From NCBI GenBank assembly GCA_021820105.1, contig JAKAED010000006.1:1-52712 (forward strand): 52,712 bases of DNA, read 5' to 3'. This DNA comes from Actinomycetes bacterium. Its GTDB lineage: Bacteria > Actinomycetota > Thermoleophilia > Solirubrobacterales > Solirubrobacteraceae. Both the position numbers and the translations under genes were made by a program. Positions 5,842 to 51,000 of the stretch are shown in pieces. A model generated the notes under the pieces. The model worked only from the letters and a program-made list of their open reading frames with translations. It had not been told where the DNA came from and made no database searches. Every line of letters begins with the position of its first letter. Position 1 is the first letter of the stretch.

Positions 5842-7212
5842 TCAGCCAACCCTGATCAGTTTCTTGTTGACGAACTCATCTGCTCCGTAGCGGCCGAGCT
5901 CGCGGCCGAAACCCGAGGCTTTGACCCCGCCAAAGGGCAGCTCTGCACCGTCAGCGCCGACGATGTTCACGTAGACCATCCCGGCCTCGATCCGATCCGC
6001 GACGCGCTCAGCCTGCTCCTGATCGGTGGTGAACAGGTACGAGCCGAGGCCAAAGCGGGTGTCATTGGCGATCCTGATCGCTTCGTCCTCCGAGCTGACC
6101 CTATAGACCTGCGCCACCGGACCGAAGAGCTCCTCCTGATAGACCGGGTTATCGGGAGTGATCTCAGCGAGCACCGTGGGCGGATAGAAGTTCCCCTGAC
6201 GCTCACCGGCACGACCCACAACCCTGGCGCCCTGGCCGATGGCGCTCTGCACCTGCTGGTCGAGGCGCTCGGTTGCGATGCTCGATGAGAGCGGGCCGAT
6301 CGGGCTCTCGGACGAGGTGGGATCACCCGGCTGCACCGCCGTCATCGCGGCCGTGAACTTCTCCAGGAACGCGTCATAGAGCTCGTCGATGACGATGAAC
6401 CGCTTGGCGGCGTTGCAGGACTGTCCGGTGTTGTCCAGGCGTGCCGCCACAGCGGCCTCCACGGTGGCGTCCAGGTCGTCGGTCGACAGCAGGATGAAGG
6501 GATCAGAGCCGCCGAGCTCGAGCACGACCTTCTTGAGGTATTTGCCGGCCAGCTGCGCCACGGCAGCACCGGCCCGCTCCGAGCCTGTCAGCGACACACC
6601 GCGCACCCGCGGATCCGCGATCACAGACTCAATCTGTTCGGGAACGGCGAAGATGTTGTTGTAGGCACCGTCGGGAAAACCCGCGTCAGCGTAGATCTGC
6701 GCGATGGCGAGCGCCGACTCGGGGCACTGGGGCGCATGCTTGAGCAGGATCGTGTTGCCGATGATCAGGTTCGGCCCGGCGAAGCGCGCCACCTGGTAGT
6801 AGGGGAAGTTCCACGGCATGATCCCCAGCAGCACGCCGTAGGGGCTCCGGCGGATGATCGCCGAACCCTCGCCGTCGAGCAGCGTGATCGGCTCGTCCGC
6901 GAGCAGCTGCTCCGCGTTATCTGCGTAGTAGTCGTAGATTGCCTGCGAGAAGTCGACCTCGCCGAGCGCCTGCTCCATCGGCTTGCCCATCTCGCGCACG
7001 ATGATCTTGGCGAGCTCCTCACGGCGCTCGCCGTGCAGCTCACCAACGCGACGGATCAGGGCCGCCCGCTCAGACACCGTGGTGGTGGGGATCCACTGCT
7101 TCCAGGAGTCGTAGGCCGCCCCAACGGCCGCATTGAGATCCCCATCGCTGATGGTCGGGTACTCCTTGACCGTCTCCCCCGTTGCCGGGTTGATCACCGC
7201 AAAATCAGCCAT
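5842..7212 (-). CDS. NAD(P)-dependent succinate-semialdehyde dehydrogenase-like enzyme
   Basis: Aldehyde dehydrogenase superfamily, 456 aa with the chosen start, matching the short GabD1-like subgroup. Catalytic features: PWNFP (N135), the general base E232 in LELGGSDPF, and the nucleophile C266 in NTGQSCNAAK. The ATG at 7212 is preferred over the in-frame ATG at 7233 because AAGGAGG ends 8 nt before it and the protein then begins MADFAVINPATGE, as in homologues. Likely reaction: succinate semialdehyde to succinate, feeding the TCA cycle; other aldehydes are possible. It stands alone, without a GABA aminotransferase nearby. Confidence 0.85.
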   Translation of the reverse strand: MADFAVINPATGETVKEYPTISDGDLNAAVGAAYDSWKQWIPTTTVSERAALIRRVGELHGERREELAKIIVREMGKPMEQALGEVDFSQAIYDYYADNAEQLLADEPITLLDGEGSAIIRRSPYGVLLGIMPWNFPYYQVARFAGPNLIIGNTILLKHAPQCPESALAIAQIYADAGFPDGAYNNIFAVPEQIESVIADPRVRGVSLTGSERAGAAVAQLAGKYLKKVVLELGGSDPFILLSTDDLDATVEAAVAARLDNTGQSCNAAKRFIVIDELYDAFLEKFTAAMTAVQPGDPTSSESPIGPLSSSIATERLDQQVQSAIGQGARVVGRAGERQGNFYPPTVLAEITPDNPVYQEELFGPVAQVYRVSSEDEAIRIANDTRFGLGSYLFTTDQEQAERVADRIEAGMVYVNIVGADGAELPFGGVKASGFGRELGRYGADEFVNKKLIRVG

Positions 7213-7310
7213 CCCGCAATCCTCCTTGCTCATTTCCAGCTCAGCATCCGTTCAAAGCCGCAACGGCCGAACGGTCTGAATGTTCGAATCCTGCTCTCAT
7301 TGTCATGCAC

Positions 7311-7952
7311 TCACCCATCAGCACGGCGCGCGGTGCCAAGCACATGCGGCAGGAGCGGCCTGCCGCCCTCTCCCCTGAACGTGACCCGCTCAACGTGCTG
7401 CAGCTCAAAGCCCGCCCGTTGGATCGCCGCGGTCGTGTCGCGCGCAAGATGACAACCGGCGGAGAGCCTCGTGTAGAGCGTGGCATCGAGCAACCGCTGA
7501 AGCCGAGCCCGCACCGGGTCGCTGCTGCGAACGTGCTCATAGAACCGGAGCTCTCCCCCGGGTCGCAGGACACGCCAGATCTCCCTCAGTGCAGCCTCCT
7601 GGTCGGGCACCGAACAGAGCACGAGCGACGCGACGGCCGCGTCAAAGCCGCCGTCAACCTCAGGCAGAGCCGAGGCGGTGCCGTCGATCACCTGAATGTT
7701 GGCCGCCGCTCGTGCGGCTGCCACCAACGCCAGAGCTCTGAGATGAGGCTCGGGCTCAACGGCGATCACGTCGCTGACCGCGGCCGGGTAGTGGGGGAAG
7801 TTCATGCCGTTGCCGGCACCGACCTCAATCACCCGGCCGGAGAGCCCGCTGAGCAGACGCTCGCGGTGCTCCGCGCCGCCACGCGTTTCGGCAGCCCGAG
7901 CTATCGGCGGGTAGATCCGCGCGAAGATCGGATGGCTTTGTGAGGCCGGCAT
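7311..7952 (-). CDS. Class I SAM-dependent methyltransferase
   Basis: 213-aa methyltransferase with motif I VIEVGAGNGMNFPHYP, acidic motif II AVEPEPHL, and GGFDAAVASLVLCSV followed by LREIWRVLRPGGELRFYEH. This pattern is typical of the UbiE/Methyltransf_11 group. No Shine-Dalgarno precedes the ATG. It lies 99 bp downstream of the HpnR-like gene on the same strand, so co-transcription and a role in lipid modification are possible. The substrate cannot be told from sequence. Confidence 0.8.
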   Translation of the reverse strand: MPASQSHPIFARIYPPIARAAETRGGAEHRERLLSGLSGRVIEVGAGNGMNFPHYPAAVSDVIAVEPEPHLRALALVAAARAAANIQVIDGTASALPEVDGGFDAAVASLVLCSVPDQEAALREIWRVLRPGGELRFYEHVRSSDPVRARLQRLLDATLYTRLSAGCHLARDTTAAIQRAGFELQHVERVTFRGEGGRPLLPHVLGTARRADG

Positions 7953-7978
7953 TGGTGAGAATCACCCGGTACTTGGGG

Positions 7979-7996
7979 TCACCCGAAAATGGGTGA
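7979..7996. promoter_or_regulatory. Small inverted repeat upstream of the methyltransferase gene
   Basis: TCACCC (7979-7984) and GGGTGA (7991-7996) form a 6-bp perfect inverted repeat with loop GAAAAT. A further TCACCC copy lies just before it, at about 7962-7967. Located 27 bp upstream of the methyltransferase start, it could be an operator or the 3' hairpin of the upstream gene. Confidence 0.3.
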
Positions 7997-8051
7997 GCGC
8001 CCCGAAACAAGATGCTACTGCGGCACTGCCCCAGCCTGCCTTCAAGCCTGA

Positions 8052-9542
8052 TCAGCCGGCACCTGCGGCCGAGACGCGACTGTGCACGTAGAGCTGCTCC
8101 CGCGTGGGCGCCGGCTGCTCTGGCGGAGGTGGTTGCGGAAGCTCGTACCTGAGCTCACGGCCATGGTCGGCGAACTGCCGCTCAGGGTTGTACACGGACT
8201 TGAATTTCCAGAGACTCATCAGGAAGTTGGTCTGACCCCGGGCGAGCTGTCCGGCGATCAAACCGGCAGCGCCAACCATGGCGCTCAGGCCCAGGTGCTT
8301 GCGGTTGAGCACGCTCTGGGTCTTGACCAGTTCCTCATAGAAGCGCTGGAGCGGCAGGCGCGTGGGGAGCACCGCGTGTTGGATGTCAAAGAGCCTGTAG
8401 TCGCGGGTTGTGAGCTTCTGAGACTCGCTGTGCCACAACTGTGTGCCCGGGTAGGGGGTGATGACGGTGAGATGCACTATCTCCGGGATGGAGAGGGCGA
8501 ACTCCCGTACCAGCTGGAACTGTTCCTCATCCCATTGCGGATCGACGATCAGGTTGATCGCGACGGTGATCCCGAGCTTGCGCGCCAGTTCCAGCGCACG
8601 GATGTTCGCCTCCGGGCTGACACGCTTGCGGTAGAGCTCCAGCCCCTCAGCATCGAGCGCCTCAATTCCCAGGAACATGTAGGCGAGGCCAAGCCGCTGC
8701 CAACGCTCAAAGACCTCAGGGTTTCGCAGCAGCACATCCGCACGGGTCTCCAGGTAGTAGCGCTTGTCGACCCGCAGACGCTCCGTCTCCTGGGCGATCG
8801 CCTCACCATGATGCGCCTTGATGAACGCAACATCGTCGACGATGAAGACGTTCGGCTCCTGGATCGACTGCAGCTCGCGCGCAGCCGCATCCGGACTGGA
8901 GCGCCGGTAGCTGCGTCCGTAGAAGGTCCACGCCGAGCAGAACGAACAGTCCCAGGGACAGCCGCGGGTGAACTCGATCGACGCGCATGGATCCAGCTCG
9001 CCGATGAAGTACCTGTTGCGGCGGCGCAGAAGGTCGCGGGCGGGCGGGCACTCGTCGAGGCTCTCCAGCATGAGCGGGGCTCCGGGTCCGTCACCCGAGC
9101 TCGTCATGACGCCCGGTAACTCAATCTGTTCAGCGTCCTCCACGGCGCGCAACAGCAGCGGCGTGACCACCTCACCGTCGCCGCGGATGATGGCGTCAAG
9201 GCCGCCCTCCGACTGCTCCAGCACGTGCGCCGCGATGAATGAGACGCTGTGTCCTCCAGCGAACTGAAAGCATGACGGCAGCAGCCTGCGAACCCGGTGA
9301 GCCAGGTCCAGCACCTCCGGCACGTTCGCCAGGTAGTTCAGACCGTAGCCGACCGCCTCCGGCCTGAAGCTGATCAGCTCACGCTGCAGCTCCGTGCTCG
9401 AGCAGACCTGCAGATCGATGATCCGCACCCTATGGCCCGCGCGACGGGCCGCGGCTGCGACACGCTCAAGCCCCAATGGCTCAAGCCGCAGGAAGACCTG
9501 CGAGTACATGAGCGGGCTTGGATGGATGAAGAGAACCCGCAC
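8052..9542 (-). CDS. hpnR: B12-binding radical SAM methylase, HpnR-type (hopanoid C-3 methylase)
   Basis: 496-aa cobalamin-dependent radical SAM protein. The N-terminal B12-binding domain (about 1-130) begins VRVLFIHPSPLMYSQVFLRL and contains GLNYLANVPEVLDL and FAGGHSVSFIA. The radical SAM domain follows, with FTRGCPWDCSFCSAWTFYGR (cluster cysteines C195, C199, C202). This exact neighbourhood, with LDPCASIEF before it, is what I recognise from HpnR. HpnR methylates bacteriohopanepolyols at C-3 using SAM and methylcobalamin. Start chosen: GTG at 9542, where homology begins; the in-frame region upstream is antisense to other sequence and not HpnR-like. No squalene-hopene cyclase is in the window, so hopanoid substrate supply is assumed. 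Confidence 0.75.
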   Translation of the reverse strand: MRVLFIHPSPLMYSQVFLRLEPLGLERVAAAARRAGHRVRIIDLQVCSSTELQRELISFRPEAVGYGLNYLANVPEVLDLAHRVRRLLPSCFQFAGGHSVSFIAAHVLEQSEGGLDAIIRGDGEVVTPLLLRAVEDAEQIELPGVMTSSGDGPGAPLMLESLDECPPARDLLRRRNRYFIGELDPCASIEFTRGCPWDCSFCSAWTFYGRSYRRSSPDAAARELQSIQEPNVFIVDDVAFIKAHHGEAIAQETERLRVDKRYYLETRADVLLRNPEVFERWQRLGLAYMFLGIEALDAEGLELYRKRVSPEANIRALELARKLGITVAINLIVDPQWDEEQFQLVREFALSIPEIVHLTVITPYPGTQLWHSESQKLTTRDYRLFDIQHAVLPTRLPLQRFYEELVKTQSVLNRKHLGLSAMVGAAGLIAGQLARGQTNFLMSLWKFKSVYNPERQFADHGRELRYELPQPPPPEQPAPTREQLYVHSRVSAAGAG

Positions 9543-39164: not shown

Positions 39165-39180
39165 CTCCTATTCGTAGGAG
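39165..39180 (-). promoter_or_regulatory. Shine-Dalgarno-sequestering hairpin (translational coupling)
   Basis: On the minus strand CTCCTA pairs with TAGGAG (6 bp, loop CGAA). The hairpin holds the permease stop codon TAG and the AGGAG ribosome-binding site of the 6-TM gene. A ribosome finishing the permease would open it and free the site. The CTCCT arm is complementary to the Shine-Dalgarno itself. Confidence 0.6.
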
Positions 39181-41725
39181 AGCGCCGCCAGGACGTTCAG
39201 CTTCCCGGCACGGCGGGCGGGCCAGATCGCCGCAATGAGCCCGGTGATGACCGCGAGGAACACGAAGACGACCAGTGTCCCCACCGGAACGGTGAAAGTT
39301 CCGAAGTTGATCGTCGCCCCGATCAGCGCGGCCAGCAGCACCCCGAGCGGGATGCCGAAGGTGGCACCGAGCAGAGCGGTGATGACGCTCTCATGGCGGA
39401 TCATGCGCCGGACCTGCCGGCGGCTCATGCCGATCGCGCGGAGCATGCCGATCTCGCGAGTGCGCTCGAAGACCGTCAAGACGAGCGTGTTGACGATCCC
39501 GAACAGGCTGACAACGACTGACAGCGACAGCAGCACGTACAACAGGTTGAGCAGTGACGTGAGCCCCTGCAGCTGGTTGTTGATGAACTGCGTCTTGTCC
39601 TGCACCTTCGCGTCCGGGAAGCCGGCGAGCGCGGCAGTCAGCCGCGCAGAGTTGGCCGCCGTGACGCCGCCACTCATGTTTACGAACGTGAACAGGTTCT
39701 GAGGGTTCTGGTAAGCGCGATCAAAGGTGGCCTCAGAGATTGAGATGTCGCCGTAGGGCGATGCCCCCTTGGGCGGATTGGTGATTCCGATCAGCTTGAG
39801 CTGCAGGTGGCTGCCTGAAGGAGTCTCGAGCGAAAGCGGTGAGCCAACGTGCAGGTGCTGAGCACGGGCGTACGCTTGGCTCACAAATGCTCCGTTTGAG
39901 CCGAGTTGCGCCGGGATCTGAGGCCCGCCGTGCGCCCAGTCCACACGGATCGCCCGGCTCGCGTTCGGAGGCACCCCGGTGACGTTCACGTTCGAGCCAA
40001 ACGCCCGCCCCGCACCCGCACGGACGCCGACGACCGCGGTCACTCCTGGGATCCGCGCGGCCCGCTGTTCGGACGCAAGGCTGATGGGTGAGAAGTTGTT
40101 GGCGGCGGTGATCGCGTAGTTGGCGATGAAGGCACTGTTCACGCTGCTTTCAAACCCGCTCCGCAGACCCGCAGCAAGCACGCTGACAAGCGTCACCAGG
40201 GCAAGCCCGATCATCAAGGCGGACGCTGTGGACGCGGTCCGCGCCGGGTTACGGGCAGAGTTTCCCTGGGCCAGCTGACCCGGGGCTCCACCAACGCGGG
40301 TGGCGGGCCAGCCGAGCAAGCGCGCGAGCGGTGGCACGAGCTGCGGGGCGAGCATCGCGACACCGATGAATAGCGCGAGCGCTCCGGCCCCGACCCCGAG
40401 CAACCGCAGCCCGGTGGAAAGAGTCGAGACGAACAGCCCGATCAGCATCAGGGCAATCGCCCCGAGGATCGTCCCGAGCGCGGCTTGAGTGCCATACCGC
40501 GACCACCGGGAGGGCGGCAAAAGCGAGCCTTCCCGCACCAGTGAGATCGGAGCGACGCGCGTGGCCCTCAGCGCCGGTCGGAGCGCGGCGATCAGAGTGA
40601 TCACGATCCCAACCGCGAGCGCAACGATGACGGTGCGCGTCTTGAACACGGTCGCGGTCTGAGGCAGGTCGATCCCGAACGACGCAAGCAGCGAGTTGAG
40701 TCCCTTGGCCAGCAGTAATCCGAGCGCCAAGCCAATTACGGAGGCCAGCGCTCCGATCAGCAGCGCCTCCAGCAGCACCGAGCCGAGGACCTGCCTTCGC
40801 GAGGCTCCGAGGGTCCGCAGGATTGCCAGCTCACGGGTGCGCTGCGCGACGGTGATGGAGAGCGTGTTGGCGATCACGAAACTGCCGACGAAAAGGGCGA
40901 TGCCACCAAACGCCAGCAGGAAGTCCTGAAAGATATTGAGGAATCCGCTGGTGTCCTTGGTCGCCTGGCGAGCCTGAGCGCGGCCGGACCGGACCTGAGC
41001 ACTGGGGCCGAGCAGCGGCCTGATCGCCTGCACCAGCCGGTTGCTCGTGTAGCCGTGGCGAGCGGCGACGCTGATCTGGTCGTACCTCCCGACCTTGTCA
41101 AACAGCCGCTGCGCCTCGGGCAGCGTGAAGATCGTCATGGTCGCACCACCGAGCGATGAGACGCCCCCGATCTCAACCGTGCCGACGATCTGAAACCGCC
41201 TGACCGGTCCGCGGGCAACGACGCCGATCCGCTGACCGACCCGAAAGCCGTACTTGCGGGCTGTCGAGGCGTCGATGTCGATCTGGTCAGCCTCGCGCGG
41301 GAACCTCCCACTGGCCAGCGTCAAGGGACTGAACCGCCGACCGGACGGCGCGTAACTGAACGCCAGCCCAGGCGCGCCGCCGCTGGAGATCACCTTGCCG
41401 TCGCGACCGACCAGCTGCGCGGTGTCCGAGATGCTCCCTGACGCGCTCGCCACCTCCGGCAGCGCCCGCACTCTGCCCAACAGCGACGCCGGCAGCGATG
41501 GGGGTGACTGGGCGTTGCCGTTCGAGCTGCGCGAGATCGCGCTCCTGCCGCTGATCACCGCGTCGGTGTTCTGGTAGACCGCCGTGAAGACCGTTGAGAA
41601 GGCCGCTTTGATCGTGTCCGTGAGCACGAATGTGCCGCTCACCATCGCGACACCGAGGACGATCGCGAACGCGGTCAGACCCGCGCGGAGCTTGCGCCCG
41701 AGCAGACCGCGCAGAGCGACGCGCG

Positions 41726-41729
<4 letters not shown>
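39168..41729 (-). CDS. ABC transporter permease, FtsX/MacB-type
   Basis: 853-aa permease. TM1 at about 13-35, then a large extracytoplasmic domain (about 40-265), TM helices at about 270-380 with LAILRTLGASRRQVLGSVL (FtsX motif), a middle TM pair, a second outer domain, and a C-terminal FtsX block with REIGMLRAIGMSRRQVRRMI. Duplicated FtsX halves fit exporters of lipoproteins, antibiotics or peptides. GTG start overlaps the ATPase stop (GTGA), so the two form one transporter. The substrate is unknown. Confidence 0.9.
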
Positions 41730-42493
<764 letters not shown>

Positions 42494-42573
42494 CGAGCGG
42501 TGTATACCACACACCGCTGTGGTCGCCAACGGGATGATTCGCGCCCGGGAGAGGTGGGTAAGCGTGGCCGCAG
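42494..42573. promoter_or_regulatory. Divergent promoter region with overlapping inverted repeats
   Basis: 80 bp between the ABC ATPase and formate dehydrogenase starts. AGCGGTGT (42496-42503) pairs perfectly with ACACCGCT (42511-42518), and ACCAC (42506-42510) pairs with GTGGT (42519-42523) as an overlapping alternative. An operator for one or both units is plausible; a switch between two hairpins is also possible. Confidence 0.45.
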
Positions 42574-45500
42574 ATGGATCTACGTGACCTTGTGGAGAAC
42601 CTACCGCTGGCCCGGCAGCTGCGAGGCGACACGCTCGCGCTGGGTCCCGCAGCGCAGTCAGGCCCAACAGCCTCCCTGCGGCCGCGGACCGCGACAGCGG
42701 ACCGGGTGGCCAAGTCGGTGTGCCCGTACTGTGCCGTCGGCTGCGGGCAGCGCGTGTACGTCAAGGACGAGCGGGTGATCCAGATCGAGGGTGACCCCGA
42801 TAGTCCGATCTCCCGCGGGCGGCTCTGCCCAAAGGGCTCAGCCTCCCTGCAGTACGTCCACAGCCCGATGCGGGAGTACGGCGTTCTGTATCGCCGTCCG
42901 CACGGAACCGATTGGGAGCCGCTGTCGCTCGAGCAGGCGATGGACATGATCGCCGACCGCGTCATTGACACGCGTGCGCGCACCTTTGTGGGGCCGGATC
43001 CTGATGAGCCGGAGCGCAAACTCAACCGCACGCTCGGCTTTGGCCACCTGGGCGGCGCGACACTTGACAACGAGGAGAACTACCTGATCAAGAAGGGGTT
43101 CTCAGCGCTTGGCGCCATCCAGATCGAAAACCAGGCCCGCATATGACACAGCTCCACGGTCCCCAGTCTGGGGACCTCGTTCGGGCGCGGCGGCGCCACC
43201 ACCTTCCAGCAGGATCTGCAGAACGCTGACTGCATCGTCATCCAGGGCTCCAACATGGCGGAGTGCCACCCGGTCGGCTTCCAGTGGGTGATGGAGGCGA
43301 AGCTGCGGGGCGCCAAGATCATCCACGTCGACCCGCGGTTCACCCGAACAAGCGCAGTGGCGGACCTGCACGTGCCGCTGCGAGCCGGGACAGACATCGC
43401 CTTCCTCGGCGGGATCGTCAACTACATCATCGAGCACCGCCGCTGGTTCGATGAGTACGTCCGCCGCTACACCAACGCCGAGGTGATCATCGACGAGCGC
43501 TACGCCGACACCGAGGACCTGGATGGCTTCTTCTCCGGCTGGAATCCGGAGTCCCGCTCCTACGATCCCACATCCTGGCAGTACGACGGCATGGAGACCT
43601 TCTCCGCCGGTGGCCAGCGGGAGGAGGGAGCGATCCTCGGCGAGGCCGCGCATTACGCGCAGGGCGGGCAGCTGCAGGGCGGCGAGCCGCCGAACATCGA
43701 CCCGACCCTGGAGCACCCACGCTGCGTATTTCAACTGCTCAAACGCCATTACGCGCGCTACACGCCGGAGGCTGTGGAGGAGATCACCGGAGTGCCACGG
43801 GAGGTCTTCATCGAGGTGGCCGAGAGTCTCTGCGATAACTCGGGCCGAGAGCGCACCTCCGCCTTCTGCTATGCGGTGGGGTGGACACAGCACAGCGTCG
43901 GCGTGCAGTACATCCGCACCGCCGCGATCGTGCAGTTGCTGCTGGGCAACATCGGGCGGCCGGGTGGCGGGATTCTGGCGCTCCGCGGGCACACGTCGAT
44001 CCAGGGTTCGACGGACATCCCCACGCTCTACAACATCCTGCCCGGCTACATCCCGATGCCGCACTCACACAGCCACCAGAACCTGGCCGAGTTCATAGAC
44101 AACAACTCTGCCGCCACCGGCTACTGGGGCCACATGGATGCCTATATGACGAGCCTGCTGAAGGCCTGGTGGGGTGACACGGCGACAGCTCAGAACGACT
44201 ACTGCTTTGACTACATGCCGCGAATCACCGGTGATCACTCCGTCTACCAGCAGATCCTGAAGATGCGTGACGGCGAGGTCGAGGGTTTCTTCGTGATGGG
44301 CGAGAACCCGGCCGTGGGCTCCGCAAACTCAAAGCTGCACAGGCTGGCGATGGCCGAACTGAAATGGCTGGTGGTGCGTGACACCAGCATCACCGAGAGC
44401 GCCTCGTTCTGGAAGGACGGTCCGGAGATCGAGACCGGGGAGCTGCGCGCCCAGGACATCGAGACCGAGATCTTCTTCCTGCCGGCCGCATCGCACGTGG
44501 AGAAGGCCGGCAGCTTCACCAACACCCAGCGCCTGCTGCAGTGGCGTGAGCAGGCGGTAGAGCCACCGGGTGACTGCCGCTCTGAGCTGTGGTTCATGTA
44601 CCACCTGATCAGACGGATACGCGAGAAGCTCGCAGAGTCCACCGAGGCGAGAGATCGACCGATCCTCGACCTCACGTGGAACTACCCGACCCAGGGGCCG
44701 CACGACGATCCGGATCCGGAGTCTGTCGTTGCCGAGATCAACGGCTGGGACGCGGACGGGAAACCACTCTCCGCATACACGCAACTGAAGGCCGATGGCT
44801 CCACCGCATGCGGCTGCTGGATCTACTGCGGCTGGTACGCGGACGGAGTCAACCAGGCGGCAAGGCGCAAGCCGGGCTCGGAGCAGAGCTGGGTGGCCCC
44901 GGAGTGGGGTTGGGCGTGGCCGGCGAACAGACGCATCCTCTACAACCGTGCCTCGGCGGACCCCGATGGCAACCCCTGGTCTGAGCGCAAACGCTACGTC
45001 TGGTGGGACGCCGAACAGGGCAAATGGACGGGCCACGACGTCCCCGATTTCAAACCTGATACCTCACCGGACTACCGCCCTGCCGAGGGAGCCACCGCCG
45101 AGGATGCGATCCGCGGGGACAAGCCCTTCATCATGCAGGCTGACGGGCGTGGCTGGCTGTTCGTGCCCAGCGGGCTCACCGACGGACCGCTACCGACCCA
45201 CTTCGAGCCGCACGAATCACCGTTTCCCAACCCGCTCTACGGGCAGGCGGCAAACCCAGCGCGCCAACAGTTCCCGCGGCCGGACAACCCGTCGAATCCG
45301 ACCTTTGGCGAGCCGGGAACGGAGGTATTCCCTTACGTGATGACGACCTACCGGCTCACCGAGCACCACACGGCCGGCGGCATGTCCAGGGTCGTGCCAC
45401 ATCTGTCGGAGTTGCAGCCAGAGTTCTTCTGCGAGGTGAGCCCCGAACTGGCGGCGGAGCGGGGGCTGCAGCACGGCGGCTGGGCCACCATCGTGAGCTC

Positions 45501-45798
45501 GCGCAGCGCGATTGAGGCGCGTGTGCTGGTGACCGAGCGGATCCGCCCACTGCGGATCGGCAGCGATCCGGCTCGGACCGTCCATCAGGTCGGTCTGCCC
45601 TATCACTGGGGGACCAGGGGCCTGCGAACAGGCGACTCCGCCAACGACCTCTTCCCGCTGGTGCTTGACCCCAACGTACACATCCAGGAGGTCAAGGCGG
45701 CCACCTGTGACATCCGCCCGGGCCGGCGCCCGCGTGGAGCTCAGCTGCTGGAACTGGTGGACGACTACCGGCGCCGCATGCAGGGCGAGGCGGCCTGA
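42574..45798 (+). CDS. fdhA: Formate dehydrogenase catalytic subunit, selenocysteine-containing (TGA read-through)
   Basis: Molybdenum/tungsten-bisMGD formate dehydrogenase, 1074 aa with one Sec. N-terminal 4Fe-4S ligands C50, C53, C57 and C85 (CPYCAVGCGQ, RLCPKG). The frame meets a single TGA at 43144-43146 (residue 191), then continues in the same frame as HSSTVPSLGTSFGRGGATTF and GSNMAECHPVGFQWV, exactly the sequence that follows the active-site Sec/Cys in FdnG/FdhF. No Cys is present there, so U is needed. A SECIS-like hairpin follows. Unlike E. coli FdnG there is no twin-arginine signal. Neighbours encode the Fe-S and membrane subunits. It oxidises formate to CO2. Without recoding it would look like two genes. 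Confidence 0.92.
43144..43176 (+). promoter_or_regulatory. Selenocysteine TGA codon with bacterial SECIS-like hairpin
   Basis: TGA at 43144-43146 is followed by 11 nt and then a perfect 7-bp stem, GGTCCCC (43158-43164) with GGGGACC (43170-43176), closing the loop AGTCT. In E. coli fdhF the minimal SECIS hairpin also begins 11 nt after UGA with GGU and has GU in the loop. The element is wholly within coding sequence, as expected for bacteria. SelB would bind it; selA, selB, selC and selD are not in the window. Confidence 0.85.
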
Positions 45799-45799
45799 G

Positions 45800-46702
45800 A
45801 TGCAGCTGACGCTTCATCGCAGCGCCGCGCCGTATCCACCGGAGCGGCAGCGACCACGGGTCGGCTTCTTCACCGATACGTCGATCTGCATCGGCTGCAA
45901 GGCATGTGAGGTGGCCTGCAAGGAGTGGAACAACGTCCCGGCGGATGATTGCGGCTTCAGCGGCGACTCCTATGACAACACGCTGGCACTTGGGGCCGAT
46001 ACGTGGCGCCATGTCGCCTTCATCGAGCAGCGTCGGCCACTGGGCCTCCGTGAAGAGCCCGGGACATCGCTGGTGCAGGAGGCCGCAGCTGGGCAGCTGG
46101 GGGCCGACGGGGAGCTACCGGTGCATGAGGACGCCGGCTTCCGGTGGCTGATGAGCTCAGACGTGTGCAAACACTGCACCGAGGCAGCCTGCCTGGAGGT
46201 CTGCCCCACCGGGTCCCTGTTCCGCACGGAGTTCGGTACGGTCGTTGTTCAGGAGGATGTGTGCAACGGTTGCGGCTACTGCATCCCGGCATGTCCATTT
46301 GGGGTCATCGACCAGCGCAAGGATGACGGTCGTGCCTGGAAGTGCACGCTCTGTTACGACCGGCTGCGGGATGACATGGAACCCGCGTGCGCGCAGGCCT
46401 GTCCCACAAAGTCGATCCAATTCGGCGAGCTGGAGGAACTGCGCGCTCGAGCCGAACGGCGGGTCGAACAACTGCGGGGCGCCGGGGAGCCCGGAGCGCA
46501 GCTTTATGGGGCCGACCCCCAAAACGGGGTCGGCGGAACCGGAGCGTTCTTCCTGCTGCTCGACGAACCTGAGACGTACGGCCTGCCGCCCGATCCTGTC
46601 GACACAACCCGCGACCTGACCGAGATCTGGCAGACGGCGGCCCTGGCTGGAGCCATGCTGGTCGCGGGATCGGTCCTCGCGCTGATCGGGAGCCGCAGAT
46701 GA
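45800..46702 (+). CDS. fdhB: Formate dehydrogenase iron-sulfur (beta) subunit
   Basis: 300-aa electron-transfer subunit. Four 4Fe-4S cysteine groups are visible: CIGCKACEVACKEWN; CKHCTEAACLEVCP; CNGCGYCIPACPFG; and CTLCYDRLRDDMEPACAQACP. The order is that of FdnH/FdhB. A C-terminal TM helix (TAALAGAMLVAGSVLALIG) anchors it to the membrane. ATG at 45800 lies 1 bp after the catalytic subunit stop, and its own stop overlaps the next gene. A 9-bp hairpin is embedded at 46511-46534. Confidence 0.92.
   Translation: MQLTLHRSAAPYPPERQRPRVGFFTDTSICIGCKACEVACKEWNNVPADDCGFSGDSYDNTLALGADTWRHVAFIEQRRPLGLREEPGTSLVQEAAAGQLGADGELPVHEDAGFRWLMSSDVCKHCTEAACLEVCPTGSLFRTEFGTVVVQEDVCNGCGYCIPACPFGVIDQRKDDGRAWKCTLCYDRLRDDMEPACAQACPTKSIQFGELEELRARAERRVEQLRGAGEPGAQLYGADPQNGVGGTGAFFLLLDEPETYGLPPDPVDTTRDLTEIWQTAALAGAMLVAGSVLALIGSRR
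46511..46534. repeat. 9-bp inverted repeat inside the formate dehydrogenase beta gene
   Basis: GCCGACCCC (46511-46519) and GGGGTCGGC (46526-46534) pair perfectly, with a 6-nt loop. It encodes ADPQNGVG in a linker region after the last Fe-S motif. It could slow ribosomes before the membrane helix, or be chance in GC-rich coding sequence. Confidence 0.6.
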
Positions 46703-47670
46703 CCGAGGTACGTCGTGGACCGGGACAGGTCGGCGCCTCACCCACCGGCGCCGGCAAAGGCGGCAGGGGAGAACGCCGTATGGTCGAGCCAGATCGACCG
46801 CGCTCCTACTACGGTCGTTCCGTCATCAAGGAGCCGGTCTGGAGCTGGGAGATTCCGACCTACTTCTTTGTCGGGGGTCTGTCGGGTGGCTCCGCCGTGC
46901 TGGCCCTGCTGGCCGATGTGTCCGGTCGGCCTGAGGTGGCCCGCCGCGCATGGCCGGTCTCGCTCGCATCAGCGGCCGTCAGTCCGGCTCTGCTGATTTC
47001 CGACCTGGGACGGCCCGAGCGGTTCTACAACATGCTGCGCGTGGCCAAGGCGACCTCGCCGATGAGCACCGGGACCTGGATTCTCACCGGGCTCAGCGGC
47101 AGCAACGTGGTTGCCACCGCAAACTCGCTGTTCGGCTGGTTTCCGCGGCTGGGGCCGTTCTCAAAGCTCTCGGCAGCGCTGCTCGGCCCACTGCTCAGTA
47201 CCTACACCGCCGTGCTGATCGCCGACACGGCGGTGCCGGTCTGGCATGAGGCCAGACGCGAGCTGCCATTCGTCTTTGCAGCCAGCTCGGCCGCAAGTGC
47301 CGGCGCCGCAGCTGCCCTGCTCTCACCGCGGTCTCAAGCCGGTCTGGGCCGGCGCCTGGCGATCCTGGGCGCCGCCGGCGAGACCGCGGCGAGCCGGCTC
47401 ATGGAGCGCCGGCTCGGGACACTCGCAGCGCCTTACAGAACGGGCACCGCGGGGCGGCTCTCAAAGCTTGCAACCGGCATGACCATTGCCGGCGCGGGAA
47501 TTCTCGCCGTCGCCGGTCGGCGGCGACCCGCCGGCCGGGTCGGCGGCAGCCTGCTCGTGCTCGCGGGCGCCGCCACTGAGCGGTGGTCGATCTTCAAGGC
47601 CGGCTTCCAGTCAGCACGGGACCCGCAGCAGACCGTCGGACCGCAGCGCGAGCGGCTGGCGAACAGCTGA
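46699..47670 (+). CDS. NrfD/PsrC-type membrane subunit of formate dehydrogenase
   Basis: 323-aa protein. A Gly/Arg-rich N-terminus (about 1-40) leads to the NrfD signature EIPTYFFVGGLSGGSAVL and SDLGRPERFYNMLRV, with several TM helices up to about 300. It lacks the b-haem ligands of FdnI-type gamma subunits as far as I can see, so quinone reduction would follow the NrfD/PsrC mode. The start (ATG 46699) overlaps the beta-subunit stop by 4 bp. It completes a membrane formate dehydrogenase. Confidence 0.88.
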   Translation: MTEVRRGPGQVGASPTGAGKGGRGERRMVEPDRPRSYYGRSVIKEPVWSWEIPTYFFVGGLSGGSAVLALLADVSGRPEVARRAWPVSLASAAVSPALLISDLGRPERFYNMLRVAKATSPMSTGTWILTGLSGSNVVATANSLFGWFPRLGPFSKLSAALLGPLLSTYTAVLIADTAVPVWHEARRELPFVFAASSAASAGAAAALLSPRSQAGLGRRLAILGAAGETAASRLMERRLGTLAAPYRTGTAGRLSKLATGMTIAGAGILAVAGRRRPAGRVGGSLLVLAGAATERWSIFKAGFQSARDPQQTVGPQRERLANS

Positions 47671-47730: not shown

Positions 47731-48654
47731 ATGACCACGCACCCGACGCCGAGCGAGCGGGCCCGCGAACTCGTACGTGGCGGCTACGACATGCATGTCC
47801 ACATCGATCCCGACTTTGTGGCGCGGATCATCGATGATGTCGGGCTGGCACACCGCTGTCTCGAGCTGGGCATCGCCGGCTTTCAGATGAAGTCGCACTA
47901 CTGCTCAACTGCTGAGCGGGCACGAACCGTAAACGCAGCCGTGCCCGGTGTGCACGCAATCGGCGCGATCGTGCTCAACCAAGCCGTTGGTGGAATGAAC
48001 CCGCTGGCGGTGGAGATCGCCGCGCGGGAGGGCGCCAGGACCGTTTGGATGCCGACCGTCAACTCGACCTGCGAGATGGAGGAGGTCCACAGCTTCGCTC
48101 CAGGCGCGCCCATGCCGGTGTGGATGAAGTTCGAGGTCTCGTTGCGCGAGGCCGGGGTGCAGGCTGAGCCGGTGGCGGTTCTGGGCCCCGACGGGAAGCT
48201 GCTGCCGGCGGTGCTGAAGGTCCTGGAGGTGGCAGCTCGCCACCAGCTTGTACTGGCGACAGGCCACCTTGCCCGGCACGAGATATTTGCCGTTGTGGAT
48301 GGCGCGCGCGCGGCCGGAATTCGCGACGTGGTGGTGACCCATCCCGAGTTCCCCTCTCAGAACCTGACTCTCCATGAGCAGGCTGAATTGGCCGAGAGAG
48401 GAGCGTTGCTCGAGCGATGCTTCACCACGCCCTACACGGGCAAGGCGAGCTGGCAGCACGTGTTTGAAGGTGTGCGAGCCAGCGGAGTCGAGAACAACGT
48501 TCTCTCGACGGACCTCGGCCAGGTGTTCAATCCACCAGTGGAGGACGGGCTGGCGCTGTTCATCGATCGGTTTCTGGAAGCCGGCTTCAGTGAGGAGGAG
48601 GTCCACATGATGGCGGTTGAGAACACGCGCAGGCTCGCGGGAGTGACCCAATGA
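47731..48654 (+). CDS. DUF6282-like metal-dependent hydrolase-type protein
   Basis: 307-aa protein of the DUF6282 type (amidohydrolase-like TIM barrel). The N-terminal D20-x-H22-x-H24 (GYDMHVHIDPDF) is a metal site, with SHYCSTAERARTV, ATGHLARHE and VVVTHPEFPSQNLTL giving further His, and LSTDLGQVFNPPVEDGLALF a likely catalytic Asp. No Shine-Dalgarno is seen. It is the first gene of an operon: its stop overlaps the GalB-like start (ATGA). By context, it may hydrolyse a lactone or other ring-cleavage intermediate, as LigI does in the 4,5-cleavage pathway; this is inference. Confidence 0.7.
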   Translation: MTTHPTPSERARELVRGGYDMHVHIDPDFVARIIDDVGLAHRCLELGIAGFQMKSHYCSTAERARTVNAAVPGVHAIGAIVLNQAVGGMNPLAVEIAAREGARTVWMPTVNSTCEMEEVHSFAPGAPMPVWMKFEVSLREAGVQAEPVAVLGPDGKLLPAVLKVLEVAARHQLVLATGHLARHEIFAVVDGARAAGIRDVVVTHPEFPSQNLTLHEQAELAERGALLERCFTTPYTGKASWQHVFEGVRASGVENNVLSTDLGQVFNPPVEDGLALFIDRFLEAGFSEEEVHMMAVENTRRLAGVTQ

Positions 48655-49364
48655 GCCGGAGGATCCAGGTCATTGGAGCTCACTCAGCCGATTTTGTCTG
48701 GCGCGCCGGAGGGGCAATAGCCAAGACGGTTGAACTGGGTGGCAAGGCTGAGGTCGTGGCGATCTCATACGGCGAACGTGGCGAGTCAGGTGAGCTCTGG
48801 AAGGTGGAGGGCCAGACCATTGAGAACGTGAAGCGAATCCGCCACCAGGAGGCGGAGGCTGCAGCGGCCGAACTGGGGGCGACGTTCAGGGCGCTTGACC
48901 TGGGCGACTATCCGCTGCAGATCGGCGCACAGGAGCTGGCAGTGATCGCCGAGACCATCCGCGAGTTCGCACCCGACGTGCTCATCACCCACACCGACAC
49001 CGATCCGTTCAACCCTGACCATCCGGTTGCCTTCCATGCAGTCGACCGCGCGCGCTCGCTGGCCGCCGGTGCCGGCGTGCAGAGCGCGTTCAGGACGATC
49101 AGACCGCCGCAGCTGTTCCTGTTCGAGCCCCACCAGCCAGAGCTCTGCAACTTCGTGCCGACTACGTTCGTGGACATCACCTCAGTCTTTGAAAGGAAGC
49201 GTGCGGCAATGGCCCATATGCAGGCGCAGGCATATCTGCAGACCTACTACGCGCAGCGTGCCGAGCACCGGGCCAACCACGCGCGGCGCGCCAGCGGCAA
49301 CCAAGAAGTTCGTTATGCCGAAGCGTTCCAGCGCGTCATCCCGCAGGTGGTGACGGAGCTGTGA
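48651..49364 (+). CDS. PIG-L family hydratase, GalB-like (4-oxalomesaconate hydratase)
   Basis: 237-aa PIG-L superfamily protein. The usual AHPDDE motif is AHSADF (H11, D14), and VWRAGG, SYGERGESGELWK, DLGDYPLQ, FLFEPHQPELC and RYAEAFQRVIPQV follow. These are the marks I associate with GalB-type oxalomesaconate hydratases rather than deacetylases. H124 and H129 (NPDHPVAFH) supply further metal ligands. It adds water to oxalomesaconate to give 4-carboxy-4-hydroxy-2-oxoadipate. Start and stop overlap its neighbours (ATGA and GTGA), tying it to the aldolase and dioxygenase. Confidence 0.75.
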   Translation: MSRRIQVIGAHSADFVWRAGGAIAKTVELGGKAEVVAISYGERGESGELWKVEGQTIENVKRIRHQEAEAAAAELGATFRALDLGDYPLQIGAQELAVIAETIREFAPDVLITHTDTDPFNPDHPVAFHAVDRARSLAAGAGVQSAFRTIRPPQLFLFEPHQPELCNFVPTTFVDITSVFERKRAAMAHMQAQAYLQTYYAQRAEHRANHARRASGNQEVRYAEAFQRVIPQVVTEL

Positions 49365-50026
49365 CCGGGGGTGGCGCTGATGCCGCAGGTGCCGGCCCGC
49401 TGGCCGGCACCTACCGTGAGCTCGCAAGGTTGGGGTCGGCCACCGTTTACGAGGCCGGTGGCCGCGGGGGCTACGTGGACGCCGACCTCGTCCAGGCGGT
49501 GCCCGGAAGCCGCGCCTGCGGACCGGCCCGCACGGTGATCTGCGGGCAGGATGACAACCTGATGGTCCACGCGGTGATGGCCGAGTGCCTACCTGGCGAG
49601 GTACTCGTGCTGACGATGCCCGAACCGCGTCCGGTGGCGCTTGTTGGTGACCTGCTGGCCACCCAGGCACAGGCTGCGGGGGTCGCTGGAATCCTGGTCG
49701 ATGCGGCGATCCGCGACGCTGAGGAACTGGCCGAGATGGGCCTGCCGATCTGGGCGCGATGGGTGCGCATCAGAGGGGCGGCAAAGGCGACAGCAGGTCA
49801 GATCAACGTGCCGGTGACGGTCGGAGGCGCACAGATCAATCCGGGAGACGTGGTTGTGCTCGACGCCGACGGCGTGGCGATCGTGCCGGAGAACCGCGTG
49901 GCCGAGGTGCTCGAGGCATCGCTGGCACGCGAGCAGAAGGAACAGAAAAAACGCGCCCAGCTTCAGGCCGGGGCCAAGTCATACGAGTTGGACGGCCTGA
50001 GAGCCGTCGTGGAGGCACAACGATGA
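49361..50026 (+). CDS. RraA-type aldolase (4-carboxy-4-hydroxy-2-oxoadipate aldolase/oxaloacetate decarboxylase-like)
   Basis: 221-aa protein starting GTG (GTGA overlap). GDLLATQAQAAGVAGILVDAAIRD is the class II HMG/CHA aldolase signature, with Arg-Asp at its end as catalytic residues. Members cleave 4-carboxy-4-hydroxy-2-oxoadipate to pyruvate and oxaloacetate and also decarboxylate oxaloacetate. It follows the hydratase that would make this substrate. The stop overlaps the dioxygenase start (ATGA). RraA of RNase E control is the same fold, but the context supports catabolism. Confidence 0.82.
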   Translation: MTGGGADAAGAGPLAGTYRELARLGSATVYEAGGRGGYVDADLVQAVPGSRACGPARTVICGQDDNLMVHAVMAECLPGEVLVLTMPEPRPVALVGDLLATQAQAAGVAGILVDAAIRDAEELAEMGLPIWARWVRIRGAAKATAGQINVPVTVGGAQINPGDVVVLDADGVAIVPENRVAEVLEASLAREQKEQKKRAQLQAGAKSYELDGLRAVVEAQR

Positions 50027-51000
50027 GCGAACTCAGGCCACCGGACATAGCGCACCTCGGTCCGCTTGAGATGTTCACGCCAAAGCCGCAGGAGAGCGTC
50101 ACCTTCTTCACCGAGATGATGGGGATGGAGGTTGTTCACCAGGAGGGTCAGTCCGCGTATCTCCGCGGCTGGGACGACTACCAGATCTGGTCTCTGAAGC
50201 TGACTGAAGCGCCACTCCCGGGGCTCGGCTACTGCGGCCTGCGCACCTGGAGTCCGGAGGCACTGCAGCGTCGGGTGGCTCTGATCGAGGCGACCGGCCT
50301 GGGCGACGGCTGGCACGAGCGCGGTGACTTTGGCCTGGGACGGGCGTATGCCTTCCGCGACCCAGACGGGCACCACTTCAAGATCTACAGCGATGTGGAG
50401 CGCTACGTCAAGCCGGTCGCGACGGACTTCAAGAACGTTCACGGCAAGCAGCCAAACAAGGCGATCGCGGTCAAGCGCTTTGACCACCTGAACATCCTGG
50501 CGGGCGACATCCGGGCGCAACGCGACTTCTGCGTGGAGACGCTGGGGTACCGTGAGTACGAGCGCATCGAGCTGGATGACGGCACCCTCGGCGGCTCATG
50601 GATGTCAGTGTCGATTGCTGCGCACGAGCTGATCTACACCAGGGACGCCTACGCGCCGCAGGGGGCGCATGGCCGTCTGCACCATGCCGCCTTTTGGGTT
50701 GACACGCGCGAGGAGTGCCTGCGTGCTGCGGACATCTGGATCGAGAACGATGTCTACGTGGAGTTCGCACCGTCCAAGCACAACGTCGCGCAGGGCTTCT
50801 TTCTGTACGGATATGAGCCCGGTGGAAACCGGATCGAGGTGACCTCGGGCGGTCGCCTGGTCTACGCCCCTGACGAGCCCTGCGTGATCTGGACGCAGGC
50901 CGATCGGGCCAAGGGTCAGGCGTGGCACAACGCAACCGTGGCGACCTTCCACACCTACGGCACGCCACCGTTCGAGCCCGCCGAACCGGTGACTCACTGA
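50023..51000 (+). CDS. Extradiol ring-cleavage dioxygenase (catechol 2,3-dioxygenase-like, VOC type)
   Basis: 325-aa type I extradiol dioxygenase with two VOC modules. Fe(II) ligands expected at H155 (RFDHLNIL), H220 or H221 (GRLHHAAFWVD) and E272 (NRIEVTSGG), with the catalytic Tyr in YGYEPGGNR. It opens a catechol ring adjacent to the hydroxyls, giving a semialdehyde or oxo-acid. In 4,5-protocatechuate pathways this step is normally done by LigAB-type enzymes, so the VOC form here is unusual. Last gene of the operon. Confidence 0.88.
   Translation: MSELRPPDIAHLGPLEMFTPKPQESVTFFTEMMGMEVVHQEGQSAYLRGWDDYQIWSLKLTEAPLPGLGYCGLRTWSPEALQRRVALIEATGLGDGWHERGDFGLGRAYAFRDPDGHHFKIYSDVERYVKPVATDFKNVHGKQPNKAIAVKRFDHLNILAGDIRAQRDFCVETLGYREYERIELDDGTLGGSWMSVSIAAHELIYTRDAYAPQGAHGRLHHAAFWVDTREECLRAADIWIENDVYVEFAPSKHNVAQGFFLYGYEPGGNRIEVTSGGRLVYAPDEPCVIWTQADRAKGQAWHNATVATFHTYGTPPFEPAEPVTH

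What the first reader, a model, noticed from the sequence alone, without database searches (positions are those of the whole stretch)
43144..43176. In-frame TGA plus SECIS hairpin: formate dehydrogenase is a selenoprotein
Seen: two open frames, 42574-43146 and 43255-45798, are in the same reading phase, and between them only TGA at 43144 interrupts. The residues after it (HSSTVPSLGTSFGRGG) match the sequence after the catalytic Sec/Cys in FdnG/FdhF. Seen: a perfect 7-bp stem GGTCCCC/GGGGACC with loop AGTCT begins 11 nt after the TGA, the same spacing as in E. coli fdhF. Known: SelB-dependent recoding needs such a hairpin. Inference: this organism inserts selenocysteine, and automatic annotation would split the gene.
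Basis: partly seen in the sequence, partly recalled or inferred. Interest (0 to 1): 0.85.

Follow-up and report, generated by a model that had tools for sequence, protein, structure and literature searches.

The report
Selenocysteine-containing formate dehydrogenase gene

Summary
Confirmed and ordinary. An in-frame TGA (43144-43146) interrupts a 1074-codon gene (42574-45798) that matches NCBIfam NF041513, formate dehydrogenase, end to end (1918 bits); residue 191 aligns with selenocysteine in solved enzymes. A hairpin begins 11 nt later. The same genome bin holds selD, tRNA-Sec (anticodon TCA), selB and selA side by side on another contig. Of 110 homologous loci, the window's included, 103 have TGA here, 1 TAG, 6 a Cys codon. 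Two facing synonymous stem positions pair in 101 of 104 Sec-type loci; 0 of 10,000 shuffles reach that; the six Cys-type loci form only 4-6 of the 8 pairs. The hairpin alone is weak evidence: about 1% of the window's TGAs have one as long. Against: no intact tRNA-Sec was found in 9 of 31 class genomes with a TGA-type gene; three of these carry 3' halves of it. The claim that annotation would split the gene fails in three plasmid records examined. Closest characterised case: the selenium-dependent formate dehydrogenase of Actinomycetospora chiangmaiensis (PMC7176365).

The parts
42574..45798 (+). fdhA: formate dehydrogenase large subunit, 1074 residues with selenocysteine at 191; ordinary TGA stop at 45796-45798
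   Evidence: (NF041513, 1918 bits against a 1400 cut-off); ATG 42574 is the first start codon after the in-frame TAA upstream
43144..43146 (+). TGA read as selenocysteine (residue 191)
   Evidence: aligned with X = Sec of 1kqf and 1h0h; 103 of 110 loci TGA, window included
43158..43176 (+). bacterial SECIS hairpin: 7 bp around AGTCT, or 8 bp around GTC
   Evidence: covariation; Rfam SECIS_3, 30.8 bits, E 2.7e-5 for 251 bases, but under the gathering score of 63
45800..46702 (+). fdhB: 4Fe-4S electron-transfer subunit, 300 aa, with a hydrophobic C-terminal stretch; starts 1 nt after the fdhA stop
   Evidence: (run on the longer ORF 45665-46702); ATG 45800 is my choice of start
46699..47670 (+). 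NrfD/PsrC-like membrane anchor subunit, 323 aa
   Evidence: (PF03916, E 3e-14); same gene order fdh / 4Fe-4S / nrfD in three named plasmid records

Best explanation
The gene encodes a membrane-associated, molybdopterin-dependent formate dehydrogenase whose metal-binding residue 191 is selenocysteine. SelD makes selenophosphate, SelA turns Ser-tRNA-Sec into Sec-tRNA-Sec, and SelB carries it to the ribosome, where it binds the hairpin at 43158-43176 and lets UGA 43144 be read as Sec rather than stop. The finished enzyme oxidises formate; electrons pass through the 4Fe-4S cluster of FdhA and the clusters of FdhB to the NrfD-like membrane subunit and, presumably, quinone. Shown by sequence: frame, position, hairpin and its covariation, all four sel genes in the same genome bin, operon order. 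Inferred from known families: every biochemical step, Mo rather than W, the cytoplasmic side, and the direction of electron flow.
For: NF041513 over residues 7-1068 at 1918 bits. Residue 191 aligns with X (Sec) in E. coli FdnG 1kqf and in 1h0h. selD, tRNA-Sec, selB, selA in one cluster, L131 9357-10418, 9207-9297, about 7671-9122, 6313-7674, all minus strand; tRNA-Sec has anticodon TCA and G behind the acceptor stem; SelB carries the SelB-wing_3 winged helix. 103 of 110 loci have TGA (two pairs of loci give identical proteins, 108 distinct). Val3/Gly3 in the stem form standard pairs in 101 of 104 Sec-type loci, shuffled mean 69.3, 0 of 10,000 shuffles reach it; for 46 distinct stem regions 43 of 46, mean 27.9, 0 of 10,000 (shuffles ignore relatedness). 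On the protein tree the pair state needs at least 24 changes, Val3 alone 19 and Gly3 alone 16. Published bSECIS limits (3-9 nt loop, G in its first two positions, 16-37 nt from UGA, at most -7.5 kcal/mol; PMC13188914, section 5) are all met: AGUCU or GUC loop, 18 or 19 nt, -15.4 kcal/mol. SelA is over its cut-off in 29 of 31 class genomes with a TGA-type gene, G000 included.
Against: No intact tRNA-Sec was found in 9 of these 31 genomes (G077, G091, G104, G110, G159, G185, G189, G191, G195), and G077 and G091 also lack SelA. They are relatives, not the window's genome; G104, G185 and G191 hold 3' halves of tRNA-Sec, the other six nothing by that pattern. Conversely many class genomes have tRNA-Sec without a long match to this enzyme, so co-occurrence is weak evidence. 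The own genome is a 264-contig bin, 88.9% complete, and its sel cluster lies on another contig than the window, so a binning error is possible, though composition agrees and its tRNA-Sec is closest, 9 differences in 91 positions, to that of same-genus G163 among the 23 others aligned. Folding energy alone is unremarkable for longer stretches. The SECIS_3 score is under Rfam's gathering cut-off. No protein data.
Confidence: 0.97

Rival explanations
1. Sequencing or assembly error in a Cys codon (TGC or TGT), so the gene is an ordinary Cys-type formate dehydrogenase.
For: Cys-type relatives with TGC or TGT at this codon exist: 6 of 110 loci, one in the same genus.
Against: 102 other loci carry TGA at the codon. 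The Cys-type loci have lost the stem (4-6 of 8 pairs against 7-8 in 101 of 104 Sec-type loci) and have Ala or Val at codon 197, where the window, like 102 of 104 Sec-type loci, has Pro. On the tree the window falls outside the Cys clade.
Confidence: 0.01
2. UGA is a real stop here: a pseudogene, or a short 190-aa protein with a separate downstream gene.
For: UGA is an ordinary stop elsewhere in this genome, for example at the end of this same gene.
Against: Both halves are intact over the full NF041513 profile; conserved residues begin directly behind the TGA, before ATG 43255; the hairpin is kept by covariation; sel genes are present.
Confidence: 0.01
3. UGA is read as some other residue (Trp or Cys) by a changed genetic code or a suppressor, without selenium.
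For: None found; no search for suppressor tRNAs was made beyond the tRNA calls listed.
Against: The only TGA inside the frame is the Sec position, while the gene ends with TGA and fdhB starts 1 nt later; tRNA-Sec with anticodon TCA and selA, selB, selD are present.
Confidence: 0.01

Closest known systems
Selenocysteine-containing FDH1 of Actinomycetospora chiangmaiensis DSM 45062 (PMC7176365; search listing, passages and section 7 seen)
   Same: Predicted Sec in a FdhA of 1078 residues (window 1074), with FdhB and a membrane subunit, and sel genes in the genome; formate removal by the strain needed selenite, and FdhA1 was detected in its proteome at low abundance.
   Different: There selA and selB sit in the FDH1 cluster; in the window's genome the sel genes are on another contig. 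The strain has three Sec-type enzymes, so the selenium effect is not FDH1's alone. I did not align the two proteins.
NCBIfam NF041513 formate dehydrogenase (formate_DH_Act)
   Same: Full-length match, 1918 bits over a cut-off of 1400.
   Different: Nothing seen.
E. coli formate dehydrogenase N alpha subunit FdnG (1kqf)
   Same: Same family and Sec position.
   Different: The window protein lacks a twin-arginine signal, has Pro rather than Ala at 197, and its membrane partner matches NrfD.
fdh / 4Fe-4S / nrfD / selD / selA / selB cluster on Arthrobacter sp. YA7-1 conjugative plasmid pYA7-1a (NZ_CP110115.1)
   Same: 63% identical protein, TGA at the codon with a hairpin, same three-gene order.
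   Different: selD, selA and selB directly follow the fdh genes there.

Membership tests
Bacterial selenoprotein gene (SelB-dependent recoding) | In-frame UGA at a catalytic Sec/Cys position | tested here: met
Bacterial selenoprotein gene (SelB-dependent recoding) | bSECIS hairpin within published limits (loop 3-9 nt, early G, 16-37 nt from UGA, at most -7.5 kcal/mol; PMC13188914 section 5) | tested here: met
   bSECISearch itself was not run
Bacterial selenoprotein gene (SelB-dependent recoding) | Hairpin under selection, shown by covariation | tested here: met
   101 of 104 Sec-type loci pair Val3 with Gly3; 0 of 10,000 shuffles
Bacterial selenoprotein gene (SelB-dependent recoding) | selA, selB, selC, selD in the genome | tested here: met
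   (another contig of the same bin)
Bacterial selenoprotein gene (SelB-dependent recoding) | Selenium present in the protein | not testable with these tools
   needs mass spectrometry or selenium labelling
NF041513 formate dehydrogenase | Score over curated cut-off along the whole profile | tested here: met
   1918.4 over 1400, profile 3-1067 of 1067
Rfam RF01989 SECIS_3 | Score over gathering threshold (63 bits) | tested here: not met
   30.8 bits, E 2.7e-5; alike, but not a member by Rfam's rule
Formate dehydrogenase N (FdnG type), periplasmic | Twin-arginine export signal | tested here: not met
   N-terminus read by eye has no twin arginine; ATG 42574 is the first start in the frame

The most novel reading that the evidence does not exclude
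In this group of enzymes the RNA hairpin has dictated an amino acid: Pro197 (CCC, half of the stem) is there because the stem needs those letters, not because the enzyme needs proline. Pro is found in 102 of 104 Sec-type loci; the two exceptions are the two most distant Sec-type rows (Thr, Ala). Solved Sec enzymes outside the group have Ala there (1kqf, 1h0h), and when the group swapped Sec for Cys, once on this tree, the residue is Ala (5) or Val (1). With one swap on the tree this is a correlation of one event.
Probability: 0.5. Interest if true: 0.3.

Novelty: new member of a known kind. Interest (0 to 1): 0.15.

Why it matters
It secures the reading of one gene: this bacterium probably needs selenium to oxidise formate by this enzyme. 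As a class it is textbook; the formate dehydrogenase alpha subunit is described as the most widely distributed selenoprotein family of bacteria (PMC13188914, passages; similarly PMC5029168, passages). The comparative set gives a clean small example of covariation at two synonymous sites and of one Sec-to-Cys replacement that goes with loss of the hairpin.

Tried and rejected
Rfam at gathering thresholds over the window gave nothing and ARAGORN found no tRNA in the window; neither speaks against the reading, since the hairpin scores under the cut-off and tRNA-Sec is on another contig. Folding the 53-nt stretch gave z -1.08, so energy alone is no argument. RF01852's gathering score (47 bits) is no yes/no test across genomes, because tRNA-Ser genes reach 52.7 bits; I counted only hits above 55 bits, a line I drew myself. 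cmscan of six stretches around selA in genomes without such a hit found no tRNA-Sec. A model from 24 tRNA-Sec sequences gave one further hit at E 1e-8 or better, in G191; ARAGORN calls it tRNA-Sec, but its 5' half does not match that of the others, so I do not count it as intact. A search for papers with selenocysteine, Solirubrobact and formate dehydrogenase gave 0 in the held library. I considered a base error, a pseudogene and a changed code, and rejected them as given under rivals.

Full report
What was checked. The frame 42574-45798 is open apart from that TGA and ends with an ordinary TGA; fdhB can start 1 nt later.

What it is. The read-through protein matches NCBIfam NF041513 from residue 7 to 1068 at 1918 bits, three Pfam domains of molybdopterin oxidoreductases, and solved selenium formate dehydrogenases, whose Sec (X) aligns with residue 191. 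Downstream lie a 4Fe-4S subunit and an NrfD-like membrane subunit, the same order as in three named plasmid records. Unlike FdnG there is no twin-arginine signal, so the enzyme probably faces the cytoplasm (inference from the translation).

The genome can insert selenocysteine. G000 (264 contigs, 88.9% complete) holds tRNA-Sec at 64.6 bits, anticodon TCA, followed by G, and selB, selA and selD over their cut-offs at 300.6, 457.5 and 374.6 bits. All four lie side by side on contig C239, in the order selD, tRNA-Sec, selB, selA. SelB has the SelB-wing_3 domain. Composition of C239 and of the window agree as well as pieces of the window agree with each other, and the tRNA-Sec is closest to that of same-genus G163, 9 differences in 91 positions, among 23 others aligned; so a binning error is unlikely though not excluded.

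Relatives. I took 30 loci from a draw of 199 genomes of the same class (the best matches) and the best 80 of at least 585 in named genomes: 110 loci, the window's own (L021) included, 108 distinct proteins; all 110 gave a readable codon. 103 have TGA, 1 TAG, 5 TGC, 1 TGT. The sample is of close relatives by design and does not measure how common Cys forms are. Shorter, distant matches (140 bits or less, many with a TGA inside) were left out.

Covariation. In the stem the third base of Val196 faces the third base of Gly200. Among 104 Sec-type loci they pair C-G 43, T-A 37, T-G 12, G-C 9, and fail in 3; shuffling gives a mean of 69.3 of 104, and 0 of 10,000 shuffles reach 101. With identical stem regions collapsed it is 43 of 46 against a mean of 27.9. 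Shuffles ignore relatedness; on the protein tree the pair needs at least 24 changes against 19 and 16 for its two sides, which suggests that a number of changes fell together. The lowest pair (43158/43176 in the window) is not kept: it forms in 52 of 104. The six Cys-type loci form 4-6 of the 8 pairs, and Val3/Gly3 pair in 2 of 6.

Sec and Cys on the tree. The six Cys rows are one clade (SH-aLRT 99, quick tree, midpoint root), needing one change. It includes G160 of the window's own genus, whose copy is only 62% identical and lies far from the window's; so the genus has two formate dehydrogenases of different descent. No SelA was found in G160 and no tRNA-Sec, its best RF01852 hit being tRNA-Ser. 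Transfer of the Sec trait between actinobacteria, with formate dehydrogenase close to the sel genes, is in print (PMC5029168, passages), and one such cluster sits on a plasmid typed as conjugative.

Machinery in the class. 31 of the 199 genomes have a long match with a TGA inside; the TGA was checked to be at the Sec codon in 29 of them (G016 and G104 were not fetched). SelA is over the cut-off in 29 of 31 (missing in G077 and G091), and in 1 (G163) of four congeners without a TGA-type gene. tRNA-Sec scores above 55 bits in 22 of 31. In the other nine no intact copy was found; eight were re-searched with laxer filters and with my own model at E 1e-8, G104 only by pattern. Seven of the nine have SelA (all but G077 and G091). 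Three of the nine (G104 four copies, G185, G191) carry a 3' half of tRNA-Sec that starts at or near the anticodon loop, with foreign sequence in place of the 5' half; G079 has two such halves beside an intact gene. This looks like integrative elements that use tRNA-Sec as attachment site; with breaks in draft assemblies it could hide the intact copy. I did not show that.

How strong is the hairpin alone? Weak: 15 of 1,673 TGAs of the window's two strands have one as long. The case rests on the sum of evidence.

Annotation.

Verdict. It is a new member of a known kind, closest to the selenium-dependent formate dehydrogenase of A. chiangmaiensis (PMC7176365, passages and section 7).

Noticed in passing
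L130 6001-9270 (Geodermatophilus sp. LHW52908): This relative has TAG, not TGA, at the Sec codon with the hairpin intact. UAG-coded selenocysteine in Geodermatophilaceae is already published (PMC5330540, section 17, which cites earlier work).
   Followed up: partly
L205, L212, L214, L216 (G104), L207 and L213 (G079), L208 (G191), L209 (G185): 3' halves of tRNA-Sec starting at or near CTTCAAA of the anticodon loop, several copies in a genome, some a few kb apart: they look like attachment-site copies of integrative elements that target tRNA-Sec. No integrase was looked for.
   Followed up: partly
Six of the nine genomes without an intact copy (G185 and G191 counted) lie in one family, f7.
   Followed up: partly
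G160:C1:2992395-2995574 (L038): A genome of the window's own genus has a Cys-type formate dehydrogenase of different descent; no SelA or tRNA-Sec was found in it.
   Followed up: yes
L131 7671-9122 (-): SelB looks short, about 483 aa against 614 for the E. coli chain 5lzb; about 147 residues follow the barrel domain, so it may keep only the last winged helices. Start codon uncertain.
   Followed up: partly
48651-51000: Downstream lie a PIG-L deacetylase-like gene, an RraA/4-carboxy-4-hydroxy-2-oxoadipate aldolase-like gene and a catechol 2,3-dioxygenase-like gene (278.6 bits, under its cut-off of 320.2); meta-cleavage pathways can release formate (recalled), which could link them.
   Followed up: no
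47731-48654: DUF6282 protein of unknown function directly after the NrfD-like gene.
   Followed up: no
39168-42667 (-): MacB/LolCDE-like ABC transporter (ATPase and double FtsX permease) on the opposite strand just upstream of fdhA.
   Followed up: no
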